Assembly: GCA_965371225.1 (NCBI GenBank)
Contig: CBDUXP010000004.1
Span: 62,001 to 126,000 of the forward strand
Length of the DNA stretch: 64,000 nt
Origin: CBDUXP01 sp965371225 [NCBI: uncultured bacterium]
Lineage (GTDB): Bacteria > Abyssobacteria > SURF-5 > CBDUXP01
Direction: 5' to 3'
A program made the translations under genes and the position numbers. This document shows positions 54,013-63,889 of this stretch, piece by piece. Under the pieces are notes generated by a model. The model saw only the letters and a list, made by a program, of their open reading frames with translations. It ran no database searches and was not told the DNA's origin. Position 1 is the first letter of the stretch; each line of letters begins with the position of its first letter.

Positions 54013-54882
54013 GTGAGTGGCCTGGATTGGGCCGCGCTGGGGGCGCGCCTCGGGCTGCAGGCGGGCGACCACTGTCTGCGCGGTATAGCCGGCCGTTATC
54101 CGGTCGGAGTGACGTCGCGTGATACGGCGACCTGGCTGGGGCTCATTGTCGCCAATGCCGACCAGCGCTGCTGGACCCTCACCCGCCGGTGGGAACCCCA
54201 AGCCCGTCCGCCGCGCCGGCCGGATGCCACGACGGTCAAGTTCGCGGACCGGCGGCTGACCGAGCGCTACGTCGGGGCGGCCGAGGATTCGGCGTGGTTT
54301 CGCGACCGGCTGGGGGCGGGGGCCGCAGACGCGTTGGTCGAGGCGGCTGACGCCAACCGCCTGGGCGCGTGCAGCATCGACCTGCGCGATCACCTCTTGA
54401 CCGCGCGGTACCGGTGCGCCGCTTCCGACGTGCCCGACCTGTCCGAAACCTTAGCGGCCCTGGGCGCGCTCGCAGCGTGTATCGATTCGCCCGAAGCGAC
54501 TCTCCCCGACCTAGCCACCGTGCCGCTCCTGACCGGCGGAGGCAATGTCCCTGCCCAGAGGATGACCCGGCTCGAAGTGGACCGGGCTCGCTTGACCGCC
54601 ACCCTGGCGCGGCAGCCCGGCCTGCGCGCGCGGGTGCACCCTGCCCCAGCGGTCGTGGTGGATTGGGACGCAGGCCGGCTGCAGAACCTCGATACCACGC
54701 TGCCCCTGGAGGCGATTCGCCAGGTGGCCATCGTGGCCGAGCGGGACGGTGCGTTCTGCGCAGTGACCGACGTGGGGGGCGCCATAGTCTTCGCCGGCCG
54801 GTTGGCCGGTGGCCCGCCCCAGATCCCTACCTCTCTTGCGCAAGTGAGTCCACCGCTGGTGTACGCACGTGCGGACCGCTGA
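54013..54882 (+). CDS. Conserved-looking hypothetical protein next to NYN gene
   Basis: 289 residues, not recognised. GTG start 10 bases after the NYN stop, so co-expression is likely. Trp/Arg-rich N-terminus (LGLIVANADQRCWTLTRRWE), then KFADRRLTERYVGAAEDSAWFRDRLGAGAADALVEAAD, a helical segment, and a C-terminal half ending VTDVGGAIVFAGRLAGGPP. No clear membrane span or catalytic motif. It could be a partner or modulator of the NYN protein; this is inference from position only. Confidence 0.6.
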   Translation: MSGLDWAALGARLGLQAGDHCLRGIAGRYPVGVTSRDTATWLGLIVANADQRCWTLTRRWEPQARPPRRPDATTVKFADRRLTERYVGAAEDSAWFRDRLGAGAADALVEAADANRLGACSIDLRDHLLTARYRCAASDVPDLSETLAALGALAACIDSPEATLPDLATVPLLTGGGNVPAQRMTRLEVDRARLTATLARQPGLRARVHPAPAVVVDWDAGRLQNLDTTLPLEAIRQVAIVAERDGAFCAVTDVGGAIVFAGRLAGGPPQIPTSLAQVSPPLVYARADR

Positions 54883-54933
54883 CGGGATGCGCTCGCGTGT
54901 GCCGCCGGCTTCTACGCGGTAAGGTACCGGGGC

Positions 54934-55221
54934 ATGTCTTTCCTGGTCCCGCTGCTGGGAATCGCGAGTATCCCGGTGGTCATCTTGTTCTTCGCCTTCT
55001 TCGCGGCCTATGTCTTCAAGATGGACTGGATCGAGAGTGCGTTCGGAGACATGGACGCGTTTTGGGCGCAGCGTGCCGTGTGGTCTTGGACCCCGCGACG
55101 CCTGCGCCGGTCCAGGGAATCGGGGCGGCGCAGGCGGAAGGCGGGCGCACGGACCGCAAAGGAAGACGCGGTCGAAGCGCGTGACGCGGCGGAGAAGGCC
55201 GCCCGGTGGCCATACGACTGA
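54934..55221 (+). CDS. Small single-span membrane protein
   Basis: 95 residues: hydrophobic helix SFLVPLLGIASIPVVILFFAFFAAYVF (about residues 2-28), then a strongly basic tail with RRLRRSRESGRRRRK and a final acidic/Ala helix. Positive charges after the helix put the tail in the cytoplasm. No family recognised. No strong ribosome-binding site, and the tail composition partly reflects GC content, so reality is moderately supported. Confidence 0.5.
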   Translation: MSFLVPLLGIASIPVVILFFAFFAAYVFKMDWIESAFGDMDAFWAQRAVWSWTPRRLRRSRESGRRRRKAGARTAKEDAVEARDAAEKAARWPYD

Positions 55222-57072: not shown

Positions 57073-57199
57073 CAAGTTTTTGTATCTGGGATTGCCCACG
57101 GTGGCCGGCCTCTGAGGGGTATTGGCTGCAAAACGGGGTGAGATCGGCCGGACTGCCCACGGGCGATCGCATCACCTGTACAGCAAGGAGTCTGACGGG

Positions 57200-59404
57200 A
57201 TGAGCACCACCGGTACCAATGGCGAATGGCAGCACACCGCCTGCGTCCTGTGCAGTTTGAACTGCGGCCTCCTGGTGAAGATCGAGGACAACACGATCGC
57301 GAAGGTCAAGGGCGACAAGGCCAATCCCTTCAGCCAGGGCTACACCTGCAGCAAGGGCCTCACCATCGCGAAGTACGCCCACCACAAGCAGCGGGTGCTG
57401 CAGCCGCTGAAGAAGCAGGCGGACGGCACCCATGCGCCGATCGCATGGGAGCAGGCCTACGCGGAGATTGCGGACAAGCTGAACGGCATCATTGCCGCCC
57501 ACGGCGGCGGCGCCATCGGCCTCGCGGGCGGCGGCGGCCAGGGCAATCACCTGGACCTGCCCTATGCGACCAGTTTCTTGCGCGCCATCGACTCACCCTG
57601 GTTTTTCAACGCGCTGGCCCAAGAGTACACCCATAAATTCTGGGTGCACCGCCACACGTTCGGCGGCGACGGGGTCGACTATCACGTGGAGCCGGAACAC
57701 GGCGAAGTGCTGCTGGTGATCGGGTCCAACCCGTACATGAGTCACGGTTTTCAGCGGACGCGCGTCGTATTGAAAGCGATTGCGAAGGATCCCGACCGTG
57801 CGCTGATCGTGGTGGACCCGCGCCGCCACGAGACGGCGAAGCTGGCCGACCGGTACCTGCAGATTCGCCCGGGCACGGACGTGTATTTCCTGCTGGCGCT
57901 GGTCCACGTCATCGTCCACGAAGGGCTGGTGGACGAGGCGTCCATGACGGCACACACGACGGGTTGGGCGGACATGCGCTACCTGGCGGACCTGGTGACG
58001 CCCGAGCGGGCCGCCGGGCTGTGCGATCTGGACGCGGATGACATCCGCTGGGTGGCGCGGCGGTTCGCGGCCGCAGCGAGCGCGTCCATCCGCGTCGACC
58101 TGGGTTTGCATCACAATAAGTTCAGCGTCGAGAACGTGTACCTGGTCGATCTCCTGCACGTCCTGACCGGCAACCTGTGCAGGGATGGCGGCGCGGTGTT
58201 CCCCGCCTCGTTCTTCAGCGGTGCGGGCGTCACGGGCGGCGGGGGCCGGCGGGAACGTCCCAGCACGCGCGTGGCCGGCATCCCGCAGATTCTCGGGATG
58301 TATCCGCCGAACGCGCTCCCCGAGGAAATCCTCGACGCCGGGGAAGCTGGGCTGCGGGCGCTCTTCGTGGAAGGTGCCAATCCGCTGCGCTCCTACGCGG
58401 ATAGCACGCGGATGGAAGAGGCCTTCCGGGCGCTGGACTTGTTGGTGGTGATCGACCCGGCGATGACGGAAGCGGCGCACATGGCCGACTACGTGCTGCC
58501 CCCGCCCTGCGGTTACGAGAAGTGGGAGACGGTGGTGTTCACAAAGGGCTATCCGGGGATCTATGCGCACGTGCGGCCGCCCGTGCTCGAGGCGCCGCCG
58601 GAGACCCGGCAGGAAGGCATCATCTTCTACCAGCTCCTCAAGGCGATGGGCCGCGACGTGTCCGGCCATCCCCTCTTCGGCGCGCTCGAGCTAGCCATCG
58701 ACGCGGGCGAAGAGGCCCCGGTCCTGAGCCTGGTGCGGGGGGCCGCCACCTCGTTCTCCATGACGCGGTATCAAGAACTGTTGGACGCGGGCACGATCAC
58801 GGCGGACGGCAACGCGCCGGAGCAGGTGTTCCAGGCGATACTGGATCACCCGGAAGGGGTCGAGCTGTGTAAAGTCGACGCGGCCAACAACTGGGAGTCC
58901 CTCCGCACGCCCGACAAGAAGGTCATCCTCAATCCGCCGCCGCTGGTGGAGGTGTTTGCCGCGTTGGAGATTCCCGACGACACCGACTTCCGGCAGAACG
59001 CGGAGTTCCCCCTCGTGCTCCAAACCGGCGAGCGGAGCGACTACAGTGCGAACACGATCCATCGCGATCCGTCGTGGCGCAAGAAATTCACGAGCCAACT
59101 GCGGATGCATGAGACCGTGGCCGAAGAGTTGAGCATTACCGATGGGGAGACGGTGAAACTCATCACCGAATACGCCGAGGCGCTGGTGCCGGCGCGGGTG
59201 ACCGACGACATCTATCCCGGGAATGTCAGCCTGCCGCACGGCTACGGCCTGTTGTGGGAGGACGAGGACACCGGGAAGCTGGAACCCGTGGGGGTCAATG
59301 TCCAGGCCCTCATCAGCGCGAAGCACCGGGAGCCGATTAGCGGAGTGCCCTACCACAAGCACATCCCTTGTCGGCTCGAAAAGGTCAACGGCAGCCAGGC
59401 ATGA
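57200..59404 (+). CDS. Molybdopterin (bis-PGD) 4Fe-4S oxidoreductase, paralogue A
   Basis: 734 residues of the DMSO reductase/formate dehydrogenase superfamily. A 4Fe-4S site is formed by C15-x2-C18-x3-C22-x27-C50, with the electron-relay Lys52. Cofactor-binding stretches follow (GGGGQGNHLD, VIGSNPYMSHG, VVDPRRHETAKLAD, LQIRPGTDVYFLLA, then FVEGANPLRSYA and a C-terminal molydopterin-dinucleotide domain with YSANTIHRDPSWR and VSLPHGYG). At the position of Sec140 in FdhH the protein has Gln141-Glu142 (NALAQEYT), with no Cys, Sec, Ser or Asp. No Tat signal, so cytoplasmic. AAGGAG is 9 bases before the ATG. Substrate unknown. Confidence 0.92.
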   Translation: MSTTGTNGEWQHTACVLCSLNCGLLVKIEDNTIAKVKGDKANPFSQGYTCSKGLTIAKYAHHKQRVLQPLKKQADGTHAPIAWEQAYAEIADKLNGIIAAHGGGAIGLAGGGGQGNHLDLPYATSFLRAIDSPWFFNALAQEYTHKFWVHRHTFGGDGVDYHVEPEHGEVLLVIGSNPYMSHGFQRTRVVLKAIAKDPDRALIVVDPRRHETAKLADRYLQIRPGTDVYFLLALVHVIVHEGLVDEASMTAHTTGWADMRYLADLVTPERAAGLCDLDADDIRWVARRFAAAASASIRVDLGLHHNKFSVENVYLVDLLHVLTGNLCRDGGAVFPASFFSGAGVTGGGGRRERPSTRVAGIPQILGMYPPNALPEEILDAGEAGLRALFVEGANPLRSYADSTRMEEAFRALDLLVVIDPAMTEAAHMADYVLPPPCGYEKWETVVFTKGYPGIYAHVRPPVLEAPPETRQEGIIFYQLLKAMGRDVSGHPLFGALELAIDAGEEAPVLSLVRGAATSFSMTRYQELLDAGTITADGNAPEQVFQAILDHPEGVELCKVDAANNWESLRTPDKKVILNPPPLVEVFAALEIPDDTDFRQNAEFPLVLQTGERSDYSANTIHRDPSWRKKFTSQLRMHETVAEELSITDGETVKLITEYAEALVPARVTDDIYPGNVSLPHGYGLLWEDEDTGKLEPVGVNVQALISAKHREPISGVPYHKHIPCRLEKVNGSQA

Positions 59405-59442
59405 CCGTTCACGAGAGGGCGGTCGCGAAGGAGCGTGCGAAG

Positions 59443-61644
59443 ATGAGCAGCAACGGTTCAAACGGCGAGTGGCATTCCACGGCCTGCGTGCTGTGCAGTA
59501 TCAACTGCGGCCTGCTGGCGAAGGTCGAGGACAACACGATCGTCAAGGTGAAGGGGGACAAGACGAACCCCTTCAGCAAGGGCTACACGTGCAGCAAGGG
59601 GCTGACGGTGGCCAAGTACGCGACGCACGCCCAGCGGGTGACGACGCCGCTGAAGAAAATGCCTGACGGCACGCACGCGCCCATCTCCTGGGAGCAGGCG
59701 ATCGGCGAGATCGCGGAGAAATTGCAGGACATCGTCGCGCGGCATAGCCCCCGGTCCGTGGGCCTGGTGGGCGGCGGCGGCCAAGGCAACCACCTGGACT
59801 TCATCTATGCCGCGAGCTTTCTCAACTTGCTGGGGTCGCCGTGGCACTTCAACGCCTTGGCCCAGGAGTTCACGCAGAAGTACTGGGTGAACGGGCACAT
59901 GTTCGGGAGCGACGGCGTGGACTTCGAGGGCAACCCGCACCGATCCGAGGTGTTCCTGGTGCTGGGGACGAATCCGTGGATGAGTCACGGGATTCAGCGG
60001 GCCCGCGTGGTGTTGCGCGAGATCGCGAAGGACCCCGACCGCACGCTCATCGTGGTGGACCCCCGCCGCCACGAGACGGCGAAGATGGCGGACCAGTATC
60101 TCCAGATTCGCCCCGGCACGGACGTGTACTTCCTGCTGGCCATGCTCAACGTCATCGTGTCGGAAGGCCTCACCGACGACGCGTTCATCGCCGAGCACGG
60201 GCACGGGTGGGAGGAGGCCAAGTTCATCGCGGACCTGGTGACCCCGGCGCAGGCGGCGACGCTCTGCGACCTCAGCGAGGCGGACATCGTGGCGGTGGCA
60301 CGGCGGTTCGCGACGGCGGAGAGCGCCAGCGTCAAGGCCGATCTCGGCATCTACCACAACAAGTTCATGGTCGAGAATTGCTACTTGCTGCCGCTGCTGC
60401 ACCTGATCACGGGCAACCTGTGCACGCCGGCGGGCGCCCACTTCCCCGTGAGCATGTTCACGGGGGCGGGCATCTTCCGGGACGTGCCGGAGTCGGAAAA
60501 GCCGCGCACCCGCGTGGCGGATATTCCAATGATCCGCAACCTGTTCCCGCCGAACGCGCTGCCGGAGGAAATCCTCGACGCGGGACCGGAGCGCCTGCGC
60601 GCGCTGTTCGTCGAAGCCTGCAACCCGCTGCGTTCGTACGCCGACACCCAGCGCATGACGGAGGCGTTCGAGGATCTCGATCTGCTCGTGGTGATCGACC
60701 CCACCATGAACGAACCGGCCCGCATGGCGGACTACGTGCTACCGGCGCCGGTGGGCTACGAGAAGTGGGAGACCACCGTGTTCCCCAAAGGTTTCCCGGA
60801 GGTGTACATGCAGCTTCGGCCGCCGATTCTCGAGGGCCCGGCCGAGGCGAAGCAGGAGTGCATCATCTTCTACGAGTTGGCGAAGGCCATGGGGTTGGAC
60901 TATCAGTCGGTACCCCCCTTCGCGGCGCTGGAGGAGGCGATTGCCGCGGGGGATCCCGCGCCGGTCCTGACGCTGCTGCGCGGGTTGAGTTCCGGATTCG
61001 CCATGTACAACTATCAGGCGCTCGTCGCGTCCGGGGCCATCAGCGGCGACGGCGATGCCGGGGAAGAAATCTTCCAGAAGCTCCTGGACCATCCGGAGGG
61101 CGTCGAGTTGTGCCGCGTCGACCCCGAAGCCAACTGGGACCAGATCCGCACGCCGGACAAGAAGGCCGTGCTCCATCCCCCCGAGTTGCTCGGCATGTTC
61201 CGCGACCTGACGATTCCAGAGGATACGGACTTCCGGAACAATCCGGAATGGCCGTTCATCCTGCAGACGGGCGAGCGCACCGACTACAACGCCAATACGA
61301 TCCACCGGGACCCGAGCTGGCGCAAGAAGCAGCGCAACAGTTACCTGCGCATGCACAAGACGGTGGCCGAGGAGTTGTGTGTGACCGACGGGGAGACGGT
61401 GCGCCTCATCACGGAACAGGCGCGGGTTCTGGTGCCCGCCCTGGTGACCGAGGATATTTATCCCGGCAATCTGAGCATGCCCCACGGCTACGGTCTCTTG
61501 TGGCCGGATGAGGAGACGGGCAAGTTGGAGCAGGTTGGCGTGAACGTGCAGGAACTCATCAGCGCCAAACACCGCGACCCCACCAGCGGCGTGCCGTACC
61601 ACAAGCACATCCCCTGTCGCGTGGAAAAGGTGGAGGCCGCCTAG
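59443..61644 (+). CDS. Molybdopterin (bis-PGD) 4Fe-4S oxidoreductase, paralogue B
   Basis: 733 residues, clearly a tandem duplicate of the preceding gene: same cysteine numbering (C15, C18, C22, C50), Lys52, GGGGQGNHLD, NALAQEFT with Gln141-Glu142, VVDPRRHETAKMAD, LQIRPGTDVYFLLA and a near-identical end (SGVPYHKHIPCR.EKV). The middle regions differ more (for example HFPVSMFTGAGIFRD versus VFPASFFSGAGVTGG), which suggests different substrates or a heterodimer. The start could be ATG 59401, overlapping the first gene's stop (ATGA), but AAGGAG 9 bases before ATG 59443 matches paralogue A exactly. Cytoplasmic; no separate iron-sulfur or membrane subunit is adjacent. Confidence 0.92.
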   Translation: MSSNGSNGEWHSTACVLCSINCGLLAKVEDNTIVKVKGDKTNPFSKGYTCSKGLTVAKYATHAQRVTTPLKKMPDGTHAPISWEQAIGEIAEKLQDIVARHSPRSVGLVGGGGQGNHLDFIYAASFLNLLGSPWHFNALAQEFTQKYWVNGHMFGSDGVDFEGNPHRSEVFLVLGTNPWMSHGIQRARVVLREIAKDPDRTLIVVDPRRHETAKMADQYLQIRPGTDVYFLLAMLNVIVSEGLTDDAFIAEHGHGWEEAKFIADLVTPAQAATLCDLSEADIVAVARRFATAESASVKADLGIYHNKFMVENCYLLPLLHLITGNLCTPAGAHFPVSMFTGAGIFRDVPESEKPRTRVADIPMIRNLFPPNALPEEILDAGPERLRALFVEACNPLRSYADTQRMTEAFEDLDLLVVIDPTMNEPARMADYVLPAPVGYEKWETTVFPKGFPEVYMQLRPPILEGPAEAKQECIIFYELAKAMGLDYQSVPPFAALEEAIAAGDPAPVLTLLRGLSSGFAMYNYQALVASGAISGDGDAGEEIFQKLLDHPEGVELCRVDPEANWDQIRTPDKKAVLHPPELLGMFRDLTIPEDTDFRNNPEWPFILQTGERTDYNANTIHRDPSWRKKQRNSYLRMHKTVAEELCVTDGETVRLITEQARVLVPALVTEDIYPGNLSMPHGYGLLWPDEETGKLEQVGVNVQELISAKHRDPTSGVPYHKHIPCRVEKVEAA

Positions 61645-61785
61645 CCCCGGCCTCCGATATCGTGTCCGCCGCGCCGGTCCGGACGCCATCGCCCCCGCCC
61701 GCTACCTTGGAAGTGGACGGGGCCGCCCCCGCGGGATATGCTTGCCGCCCGGCGTCCGGCGAGGGGGGACCGCCGTGCGCGCACC

Positions 61786-63222
61786 ATGACAGAACCGGCA
61801 GTTCAGGACGAAGCGCCAGCGACCGCGCTGTCGGCAGTCAAGAAGCTGCTGTACGGCGTGGGCCAGGCTGCGCCGGGGCTGGCCGAGAACTCGATCAACA
61901 TCTTCCTGCTGTTCTACTTCACGAAGGTCGTGCAGTTGGACCCCCGGCTCGTGGGCACCGCGCTGATGGTGGGGCGCTTCTGGGACGCGATCACGGATCC
62001 GCTGATGGGGTATATCAGCGACCAGACGCGCACGCGCTGGGGCCGGCGCCGGCCGTTTCTCTTGTTCGGGGCGGTGCCCTTCGGGTTGGCGTACTTCCTG
62101 CTCTGGTGCCCCTTCCCGAACATCACGGGCAACGCCGCGTTCCCCTACCTGCTCATCACGTTTCTGCTGTACAGCACCGGCGTGACCGTTTGCCAGGTGC
62201 CGTACCTGACGCTCGGCGGGGAGTTGAGTCCGGATTACCACGAGCGGTCCAGCATCATCGGCTTCCGGCAGGTCTTCTGGATCATCACGATTCTCGTGGG
62301 CGGCGCGTTGACCGCCAATGTGGTCGGCCTCTTCGTCGACGTGCCGTATGGGGCGGTGGCGTCCCGCCCCGGCTGGGCGGCGATGGCGGCCCTGTTCGGG
62401 TGCCTCGGCACCGCGGCGTGGCTCACGGCGGGCTTCGGCACGCGCGAGGTGATCAACCCGGGGCCACGCGACACGAAACCGTTGGGGCAGGCCGTGGGCG
62501 ATGTGTACCGCGTCGCCCTGAAAGCGCTACGCAACCCACACTTTCGCAAGATCGCCGGCGCGTTCCTGATCGCGCAGATCGCGTTCATCATGGTGACCAC
62601 CACCCTGCCGTTCCTCATCAACGACTGGATGCAGATGCCCAACCTCTTCGCGCCAATCATGGGATCGCTGTTGATCGCCGCGATTCCGTGCCTGGGGTTG
62701 TGGGTGCGCCTCTCGCGCCGGATCGGCAAGCGCATGGCGTACGTGGCCGGGCTGGCCATCCTCGCGGCCCTGCCGCTGACCACCCTGGTGATCCTGCACC
62801 CGGATCGCTGGATCGGCTGGACGTTCATCTACGCGGCGCTGTTCGGCGTCGGCCTCGCCAGCCACATGGTGTTTCCCTGGTCCATGATCCCCGACACCAT
62901 CGATGTGGACGAACTCGAAACCGGCGACCGCAACGACGGATCCTACTTCGGGGTCATGACGTTCCTCGGCAAGACCAGTTCCGCCATCAGCATCTTCATC
63001 GTCGGCCAGCTCATTGGGATCACGGGCTACGACGCCAGCTTGGCGGTACAGACCGACAGCGCGCTCTTCGGATTGCGGTTGATCTACGCCGTGATCCCCA
63101 CCTTCGCATTCGCGGCCAGCATCCTGGTATTCCTACGCTATCCGCTCACCGAAGCAGCGGCGCACGAGGTGCGGGAGCAATTGCTCGCCCGCCGCGGCGA
63201 ACTCGACGCCGCCGGCGCCTGA
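61786..63222 (+). CDS. GPH/MFS_2 family cation symporter homologue
   Basis: 478 residues with about 12 hydrophobic helices. Early motifs LYGVGQAAPGLAENSINIFLLFYFT and GRFWDAITDPLMGYISDQTRTRWGRRRPF are diagnostic of the glycoside-pentoside-hexuronide:cation symporter (MFS_2) family, as are PYLTLGGELSPDYHERSSI and MIPDTIDVDELETGDRNDGSYFG. Family members import sugars, glycosides or related organic compounds with Na+ or H+. It follows paralogue B by 141 bases, and no good ribosome-binding site marks ATG 61786, so the start is provisional. It probably imports the substrate of the oxidoreductases. Confidence 0.92.
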   Translation: MTEPAVQDEAPATALSAVKKLLYGVGQAAPGLAENSINIFLLFYFTKVVQLDPRLVGTALMVGRFWDAITDPLMGYISDQTRTRWGRRRPFLLFGAVPFGLAYFLLWCPFPNITGNAAFPYLLITFLLYSTGVTVCQVPYLTLGGELSPDYHERSSIIGFRQVFWIITILVGGALTANVVGLFVDVPYGAVASRPGWAAMAALFGCLGTAAWLTAGFGTREVINPGPRDTKPLGQAVGDVYRVALKALRNPHFRKIAGAFLIAQIAFIMVTTTLPFLINDWMQMPNLFAPIMGSLLIAAIPCLGLWVRLSRRIGKRMAYVAGLAILAALPLTTLVILHPDRWIGWTFIYAALFGVGLASHMVFPWSMIPDTIDVDELETGDRNDGSYFGVMTFLGKTSSAISIFIVGQLIGITGYDASLAVQTDSALFGLRLIYAVIPTFAFAASILVFLRYPLTEAAAHEVREQLLARRGELDAAGA

Positions 63223-63289
63223 CCCCCATACGGTTTCTGCCCAGACGCCAACTGCGCGCCCGGCCCGGCGCGCTCATCGGGAGGTAATC

Positions 63290-63889
63290 ATGGCGTGGAT
63301 CACCACCACTAGCGAAGAGGACGCCACTGGCCTGACCGCCGAGGTGTACGAGCGGCTCCGCGAGTCCCCCATCTTCATGGGCAGCGTGCCCAACATTTAC
63401 AAGTCCCTGTCCCTGCGGCCGGAAATTCTGGACGTGTTCCAGAAGATGTCCTTCGTCGGCTCCTTCGGCGGCACGGGGCTCACGCGGGAAGAGGAGGAGA
63501 TGGTCTCCACCGTCGTCTCCTCCATCAACCGCTGCCACTACTGAACGAACGCGCACGGCGCGGCCCTCGTGGGAGCGGGGGGAGATATGGACTTGGCGCA
63601 CCAGCTCAAGCGCGACTGGCGCAAGGCGGACCTGAGCGAGAAGCATACGACCATGCTCGCGTTCTGCGAGAAGCTCACCGTCAACCCGAGCGGCATCACG
63701 AAAGACGACATGCAGGCGGTGCGTGACGCCGGCTGGAGCGAACGGGATTACTTCGACATGGTGCTGCTCACCGCAGCCTTCAACCTCATCGATCGTGTGG
63801 CAGACGCCTTCGGCGTCCAAGTGGACGACCAGATGAAAGGCATGCTCGACGCCATCGGCGAGGAACTCGTCTTCGATTCAAAAGCGTAG
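63290..63889 (+). CDS. AhpD-like (carboxymuconolactone decarboxylase family) selenoprotein, in-frame UGA = Sec85
   Basis: Read through the TGA at 63542-63544, the frame gives 199 residues of the AhpD/CMD family: VYERLRESPIFMGSVPNIYKSL, ILDVFQKMSFVG, LTREEEEMVSTVVSSINRCHY-U-TNAHGAAL, then LKRDWRKADLSEKHTTMLAFCEKLTVNP, SERDYFDMVLLTAAFNLIDRVADAFGV. The motif C82-H-Y-U85-TNA-H89 reproduces the AhpD active site CxxC-x3-H with Sec at the second Cys, the peroxidatic one in mycobacterial AhpD. The 3' part keeps family sequence, frame and codon style, so this is not decay. GGAGG lies 5 bases before the ATG. Likely a thiol/selenol peroxidase or redox partner serving the cluster; it would need the Sec machinery elsewhere. 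Confidence 0.88.
63550..63577 (+). promoter_or_regulatory. Candidate bacterial SECIS hairpin
   Basis: Starting 6 bases after the UGA, the RNA can fold as CGC (63550-63552)/GCG (63575-63577), an internal loop, then CACGG (63554-63558)/UCGUG (63567-63571) around the G-containing apical loop CGCGGCCC. The U at 63567 can be bulged, as in bacterial SECIS elements. The apical loop is 15-22 bases from the UGA, the usual distance. Confidence 0.6.

What the first reader, a model, noticed from the sequence alone, without database searches (positions are those of the whole stretch)
63290..63889. Hidden selenoprotein: AhpD-like enzyme with CxxU active site
A single in-frame TGA at 63542 falls exactly on the second Cys of the AhpD CxxC-x3-H motif (C-H-Y-U-T-N-A-H). 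The family sequence continues in the same frame for 115 residues after it, and a hairpin follows the UGA. Standard gene calling would report two short fragments (84 and about 106 residues). CxxU AhpD-like selenoproteins have been described from marine metagenomes as a family, but this member and its link to a molybdopterin gene cluster seem worth describing.
Basis: partly seen in the sequence, partly recalled or inferred. Interest (0 to 1): 0.88.

Follow-up and report, generated by a model that had tools for sequence, protein, structure and literature searches.

The report
Selenocysteine version of AhpD-like peroxidase-related enzyme
A bacterial gene that looks broken by a stop signal is almost certainly intact: the stop is read as the rare amino acid selenocysteine in the active site of an AhpD-like redox enzyme, a kind of selenoprotein already known and found here in many other bacteria.

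Summary
Window 63290-63889 is one frame of 199 residues with a single UGA (63542-63544) at the second Cys of the AhpD C-x-x-C-x3-H motif (C82-H-Y-U85-T-N-A-H89). Read through, it passes the TIGR01926 'peroxidase-related enzyme' cut-off (120.7 vs 81.8 bits). In draws around two chosen genomes, UGA is in 21 of 21 (Acidobacteriota) and 43 of 43 (Poribacteria) best matches. Of 44 Acidobacteriota genomes with a UGA-bearing member 43 carry SelB, against 3 of 12 with only stop-free members. SECIS-like hairpins follow the UGA in 98 of 105 members, 51% in synonymous shuffles; the window's hairpin alone is not significant. So it is a selenoprotein (about 0.95), of a listed family (AhpD-like, TIGR01926, CxxU: PMC13188914): a diverged new member (at most 41% identity to those compared), not a new kind. 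The supposed molybdopterin link is not conserved. The window's own sel genes could not be tested: no genome is held.

The parts
63290..63889 (+). Sec-AhpD-like gene, 199 aa with UGA read as selenocysteine
   Evidence: TIGR01926 120.7 bits vs cut-off 81.8; Pfam CMD PF02627 32.2 bits vs 23; predicted AhpD fold, mean pLDDT 92.1, TM 0.84 to 6k40_A
63542..63544 (+). in-frame UGA = selenocysteine 85, at the second Cys of C-x-x-C-x3-H
   Evidence: UGA aligned at the same residue in 10 of 10 fetched UGA members from the Acidobacteriota draw
63533..63535 (+). Cys82, first residue of the CxxU motif
   Evidence: part of the search pattern, so its invariance is by construction; also present in the 10 UGA members
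63554..63556 (+). His89 of the AhpD motif (Sec+4)
   Evidence: part of the search pattern; also present in the 10 UGA members
63497..63499 (+). Glu70, equivalent by spacing to the proton-relay Glu of AhpD (that role is recalled)
   Evidence: Glu in 104 of 104 relatives with a residue there; not part of the search pattern
63564..63581 (+). SECIS-like hairpin, 7 bp, apical loop GGGA 63571-63574
   Evidence: the class is significant for the family (98 of 105), not for this sequence alone
63279..63285 (+). Shine-Dalgarno-like GGGAGGT, 4 nt before the ATG
   Evidence: sequence
61738..63222 (+). GPH-family MFS symporter, 67 nt upstream; neighbour, not shown to be functionally linked
   Evidence: TIGR00792 237.3 vs 231.35 bits; no relative in the 118 loci
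57122..61644 (+). tandem pair of molybdopterin oxidoreductases (ORFs 57122-59404 and 59368-61644), 65.7% identical; neighbours, link not conserved

Best explanation
The gene encodes a bacterial selenoprotein of the AhpD-like (peroxidase-related, TIGR01926) branch of the carboxymuconolactone decarboxylase/AhpD superfamily. During translation the UGA at 63542 is decoded by SelB and tRNA-Sec, helped by a SECIS hairpin just downstream, giving a C82-H-Y-U85 redox pair with H89 and E70 as proton relay. By analogy with AhpD, the Sec selenolate would attack a peroxide or other oxidised substrate and be recycled by Cys82 through a selenenylsulfide, reduced by an unknown partner. Shown: the frame, UGA conservation, Cys/Sec exchange, the family's hairpin signal, co-occurrence with SelB in relatives, predicted fold. 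Inferred: actual Sec insertion in this organism, catalytic role, substrate and reductant. The stated confidence is for the selenoprotein reading; I would give about 0.6 to a peroxide- or disulfide-type thiol redox role.
For: The read-through protein passes TIGR01926 and aligns with Cys homologues on both sides of the UGA. Pattern scan (capped): 111 of 118 genome loci with the motif are relatives. Draws not selected for UGA except for their centre genome: 21 of 21 Acidobacteriota matches of at least 80 bits and 43 of 43 Poribacteria matches of at least 82 bits bear TGA; one of these 64 also has a TAG. UGA aligns at residue 85 in 10 of 10 checked. SelB: 43 of 44 genomes with a UGA-bearing member vs 3 of 12 with only stop-free members, Fisher p 2.7e-7. 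In 45 of the motif genomes, picked by me, SelB is over cut-off in 39 and tRNA-Sec in 34 (2 of 45 lack both); SelA and SelD over cut-off in 8 of 8, picked among SelB-positive ones. SECIS-like hairpin in 98 of 105 vs 0.51 in synonymous shuffles, mean z -1.03, p 1.2e-14; UGA members 10 of 10 vs Cys members 5 of 17, p 3.6e-4.
Against: No genome is held for the window, and no tRNA-Sec or credible SelA, SelB or SelD match lies in it, so Sec machinery in this organism is unproven. The window's hairpin alone is not significant (z -0.6). The protein sits on a long branch (1.14) with at most 41% identity to the members compared, so loss of function cannot be formally excluded. 6 of 45 motif-bearing genomes lack SelB over cut-off and 11 lack tRNA-Sec over cut-off; most are metagenome assemblies, so incompleteness is a likely reason, not a shown one. 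The tRNA-Sec cut-off is loose: 5 of 14 control genomes pass it (2 of 14 for SelB); 33 of the 34 score 61.8 bits or more.
Confidence: 0.95

Rival explanations
1. Sequencing or assembly error: the true codon is TGC or TGT and the protein is an ordinary Cys AhpD-like enzyme.
For: One base separates TGA from TGC/TGT, no reads are available, and Cys is the usual residue in lower-scoring homologues.
Against: An error would have to hit the one codon that is UGA in the best-matching relatives across phyla, with a hairpin of the right kind downstream.
Confidence: 0.02
2. Pseudogene: a nonsense mutation, with the remainder not yet decayed.
For: Long branch in the tree; sel genes of this genome not seen.
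Against: No other stop in the 199-codon frame; strongly coding-like third-position composition downstream of the UGA (GC3 minus GC2 0.48); Glu70, Cys82 and His89 kept; UGA at the same site in relatives.
Confidence: 0.02
3. General stop reassignment (UGA read as Trp or another residue in this organism).
For: A single TGA inside a conserved frame.
Against: 26 of 55 composition-predicted genes of the window end in TGA, so it looks like a normal stop there; among the fetched homologues the site is UGA or, in 17 of 19 stop-free ones, Cys, with one Phe and one Ser and no Trp.
Confidence: 0.005
4. It is a selenoprotein whose job is to serve the adjacent tandem molybdopterin oxidoreductases and transporter, as an electron-transfer or detoxifying partner.
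For: Same strand, 67 nt behind the symporter, no terminator-like or promoter-like site between the two in a simple consensus scan.
Against: None of these neighbours has a match in the 118 loci around the motif (best E 1.2); among 105 UGA members the most frequent neighbour groups occur in 15 loci each and look unrelated. At most 8 kb per locus was held, so more distant linkage was not seen.
Confidence: 0.1

Closest known systems
AhpD-like selenoprotein family (COG2128 / TIGR01926, CxxU), described from the Sargasso Sea and GOS metagenomes; review entry MCB9421940.1 (PMC1088965, PMC2398784, PMC13188914; passages seen)
   Same: CxxU motif, TIGR01926 assignment, hairpin after the UGA, Cys homologues
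   Different: This member is at most 41% identical to the relatives compared here and sits on a long branch; whether MCB9421940.1 or the metagenome sequences are closer was not tested
TIGR01926-like 'peroxidase-related' proteins with solved structures (3c1l Mlr4105, 6k40 D. radiodurans AhpD, 2pfx, 2oyo, 2prr)
   Same: Alignment over most of the length; same fold, TM 0.80-0.86 normalised to the query; C-x-Y-C in 3c1l and 6k40
   Different: Cys in place of Sec in the two alignments printed (3c1l, 6k40)
NF041238 AhpD_rel_CFYUT, alkylhydroperoxidase-related (seleno)protein
   Same: A CxxU-type (seleno)protein family; this protein matches its second half
   Different: The model is 357 positions long; this protein covers 151-352 at 76 bits against a cut-off of 175; not a member
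Classical AhpD (TIGR00777)
   Same: AhpD core; spacing of Glu, CxxC and His (classical positions recalled)
   Different: 19.3 bits against a cut-off of 191.95; Tyr just before the Sec, where classical AhpD has His (recalled)

Membership tests
AhpD-like selenoproteins (TIGR01926, CxxU) | Score over the curated TIGR01926 cut-off | tested here: met
   120.7 vs 81.8 bits, with Cys written for Sec
AhpD-like selenoproteins (TIGR01926, CxxU) | In-frame UGA at the second Cys of CxxC | tested here: met
AhpD-like selenoproteins (TIGR01926, CxxU) | Cys-containing homologues at that column | tested here: met
   Cys in 17 of 19 aligned stop-free Acidobacteriota members (three of the 17 lack the first Cys); one Phe, one Ser; a 20th locus gave no alignment; also 3c1l and 6k40
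AhpD-like selenoproteins (TIGR01926, CxxU) | UGA conserved in at least two different sequences | tested here: met
   111 relatives by a pattern that requires UGA; 21 of 21 and 43 of 43 best matches in draws not selected for UGA apart from the centre genome
AhpD-like selenoproteins (TIGR01926, CxxU) | Bacterial SECIS: hairpin after UGA with G in a small apical loop | tested here: met
   Present in the window (63564-63581) and in 98 of 105 members vs 0.51 in shuffles; not significant for the window alone; criterion written by me, no dedicated bacterial SECIS program was available
AhpD-like selenoproteins (TIGR01926, CxxU) | selA, selB, selC, selD in the same genome | not testable with these tools
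   No genome held; none seen in the window; present in most relatives examined
AhpD-like selenoproteins (TIGR01926, CxxU) | Sec actually inserted; redox activity | not testable with these tools
   needs expression with mass spectrometry, and an assay
NF041238 AhpD_rel_CFYUT | Score over curated cut-off (175 bits) | tested here: not met
   76 bits, match to the second half of the model
Classical AhpD (TIGR00777) | Score over curated cut-off (191.95 bits) | tested here: not met
   19.3 bits

The most novel reading that the evidence does not exclude
The window protein is the first seen of a separate, early-branching Sec lineage of TIGR01926 in an uncultured bacterial group, recruited into a unit with tandem molybdopterin oxidoreductases and a GPH symporter, where the selenol acts on a product or intermediate of that pathway rather than as a general peroxide defence.
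Probability: 0.08. Interest if true: 0.5.

Novelty: new member of a known kind. Interest (0 to 1): 0.27.

Why it matters
It is a clean case of a gene that standard ORF calling splits into two fragments. The survey also shows that in this branch Sec, not Cys, is the form in the best matches drawn from Acidobacteriota and Poribacteria, so genes of this kind there may often be mis-annotated (annotation itself was not checked). As a new member of a listed family it changes little beyond that.

Tried and rejected
Close relatives of the exact sequence: the first genome scan, with the protein itself and six short exact peptide patterns, found none (30 pattern hits, no relative). Plasmid records gave homologues under 60% identity (137 records); the residue at the site was not read in these. 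The two viral-contig hits of the motif and 7 of the 118 genome hits are not relatives; the two viral ones and two of the seven that I printed look to me like chance or out-of-frame matches. Placing the organism: among 46 genomes PurL is closest by bits to a Polyangia genome (51%) and Obg to a Poribacteria genome (48%), so the phylum is left open. Molybdopterin link: rejected as unconserved in the DNA held. General recoding of UGA: rejected. A second same-frame TGA at 54880-54882 was looked at: no Pfam family on either side and no match in 33 genomes, an empty answer that shows little; unresolved.

A first search for Cys controls with a fixed motif found Cys at the site in 6 of 20 loci (hairpin in 1 of 6) and was replaced by alignment-based placement, where two loci (Phe, Ser) were skipped and one of 20 (L153) gave no alignment. 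One search used relatives with phmmer E below 1e-15 (105 of 111); 104 had enough sequence, plus the window, makes 105. One search's controls used 70 of these rows. One search used a subset (94 rows: 77 Sec, 17 Cys). In one search a UGA-bearing genome is one with any match of at least 50 bits whose row lists a TGA (4 of 54 such rows also list TAA or TAG); the position of the TGA was checked for 10 rows only. The centre genomes were picked because they carry a UGA member; without them the counts are 20 of 20, 42 of 42 and 42 of 43. SelD was first compared with the window using wrong reading frames (the control failed) and was repeated with the right one, again without a credible hit.

Full report
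Observation. The frame 63290-63889 on the + strand runs from ATG, behind a Shine-Dalgarno-like sequence, to TAG with one TGA at 63542-63544. Without read-through it is two ORFs of 84 and 106 residues. Read through, the 199-residue protein passes the TIGR01926 peroxidase-related cut-off (120.7 vs 81.8 bits), but not those of NF041238 (76 vs 175) and classical AhpD TIGR00777 (19.3 vs 191.95), and passes Pfam CMD. It aligns over residues 30-185 with 3c1l and 26-176 with 6k40, which have CYYC and CVYC where this has CHYU. An AlphaFold2 model from an alignment of the window protein and 23 UGA relatives (Cys written for Sec) has mean pLDDT 92.1 and matches 6k40 at TM 0.84 and 3c1l at 0.81-0.83, normalised to the query.

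Is the UGA conserved? A scan with the sequence itself found no relative in the genome collection (84,980 species by the tool's description). 111 of the 118 are relatives by phmmer and blastp, four of them with E above 1e-10; 7 are not, nor are 2 viral contigs. Identities reach 41%. They come from Acidobacteriota, Chloroflexota, Planctomycetota, Marinimicrobia, Poribacteria, Myxococcota, Binatota and others. That set is selected for UGA, so two draws were made that are not, except for their centre genome. In 197 Acidobacteriota genomes, 99 had a match; the 21 matches of at least 80 bits all bear TGA, one of them two. In 84 Poribacteria genomes, 49 had a match; the 43 matches of at least 82 bits all bear TGA, one with a second TGA and a TAG. 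Without the centre genomes these are 20 of 20 and 42 of 42. In 10 of 10 UGA members checked it is at residue 85; of 19 aligned stop-free members 17 have Cys there (three of these lack the first Cys), one Phe, one Ser. Glu70, not in the pattern, is Glu in 104 of 104.

Does it go with the Sec machinery? In the same 197 Acidobacteriota genomes SelB is over cut-off in 130. Of 44 genomes with a UGA-bearing match of at least 50 bits, 43 have SelB; of 12 with only stop-free matches of that score, 3 do; of the other 141, 84 do (Fisher p 2.7e-7 for the first two). The genomes are related, so the p value does not count independent events. In 45 genomes picked from the motif set, SelB is over cut-off in 39 and tRNA-Sec in 34, and 2 lack both. 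Among 14 control genomes 2 pass for SelB and 5 for tRNA-Sec, so the latter cut-off is loose; 33 of the 34 score 61.8 bits or more. SelA and SelD are over cut-off in 8 of 8 genomes picked among SelB-positive ones. For the window itself nothing can be said: no genome is held, and no tRNA-Sec or credible SelA, SelB or SelD match lies in the 64 kb.

SECIS. The first 48 nt after the UGA were folded for the window and 104 relatives. A hairpin with G near the start of a small apical loop that begins 14-34 nt downstream is in 98 of 105, against 0.51 on average in synonymous recodings; mean energy z is -1.03 (p 1.2e-14). The criterion is mine, written from the published description of a small apical loop with a guanosine (passages of PMC1088965); the distance range is recalled. 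In stretches 60-108 and 120-168 nt downstream mean z was 0.03 and -0.52 (70 rows), so the second control is not fully flat. In the Acidobacteriota draw the hairpin is in 10 of 10 UGA members and 5 of 17 Cys members (p 3.6e-4). The window's own hairpin (63564-63581, loop GGGA) fits but is not significant alone (z -0.6).

Evolution. In a tree of 94 members (77 Sec, 17 Cys) the Sec label needs at least 6 changes, 3 forced by well-supported branches, so Sec and Cys seem to have been exchanged more than once; long branches meet in it, and the window protein is itself a long branch of unsure place.

Context. Upstream on the same strand lie a MarR-like gene, two molybdopterin oxidoreductases 65.7% identical to each other, and a GPH symporter. 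None has a match in the 118 loci of up to 8 kb around the motif (best E 1.2, while the AhpD-like query finds 111). Among 105 UGA members the most frequent neighbour groups occur in 15 loci each. As far as these flanks show, the gene is a stand-alone enzyme.

Known or new. AhpD-like CxxU selenoproteins were described from the Sargasso Sea (27 sequences; PMC1088965, passages), from bacterial genomes (COG2128, 2 selenoproteins; PMC1794560, passages) and from GOS (AhpD-like 1, 299 selenoproteins; PMC2398784, passages); reviews list AhpD-like, CxxU, MCB9421940.1 (PMC9312934 and, with TIGR01926, PMC13188914; passages). In the listings of five full-text searches I saw no title or abstract that describes this member or the family's prevalence in Poribacteria; the library holds open-licence papers only. 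The mechanism (Sec attack, Cys resolution, Glu/His relay) is inferred from recalled knowledge of AhpD and was not tested.

Noticed in passing
window 54013-55221 (+), TGA at 54880-54882: Two ORFs (54013-54882 and 54934-55221) lie in the same frame, separated by a single TGA, and the stretch after the TGA keeps coding-like composition. No Pfam family on either side, no match of the read-through protein in 33 genomes. Two adjacent genes, a broken gene or a second recoded UGA cannot be told apart.
   Followed up: partly
window 57122-61644 (+): Tandem pair of molybdopterin oxidoreductases, 65.7% identical, their longest ORFs overlapping by 37 bases; nearest by model to formate dehydrogenase alpha and thiosulfate reductase PhsA but under every curated NCBIfam cut-off shown; substrate unknown.
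   Followed up: partly
Poribacteria genomes: 49 of 84 genomes carry a match to this enzyme and the 43 best matches all bear UGA, so in this phylum the Sec form appears to be the rule.
   Followed up: partly
genomes: SelD itself carries one in-frame TGA in the best match of 6 of 8 genomes, so SelD is probably a selenoprotein there too (a known situation, recalled).
   Followed up: no
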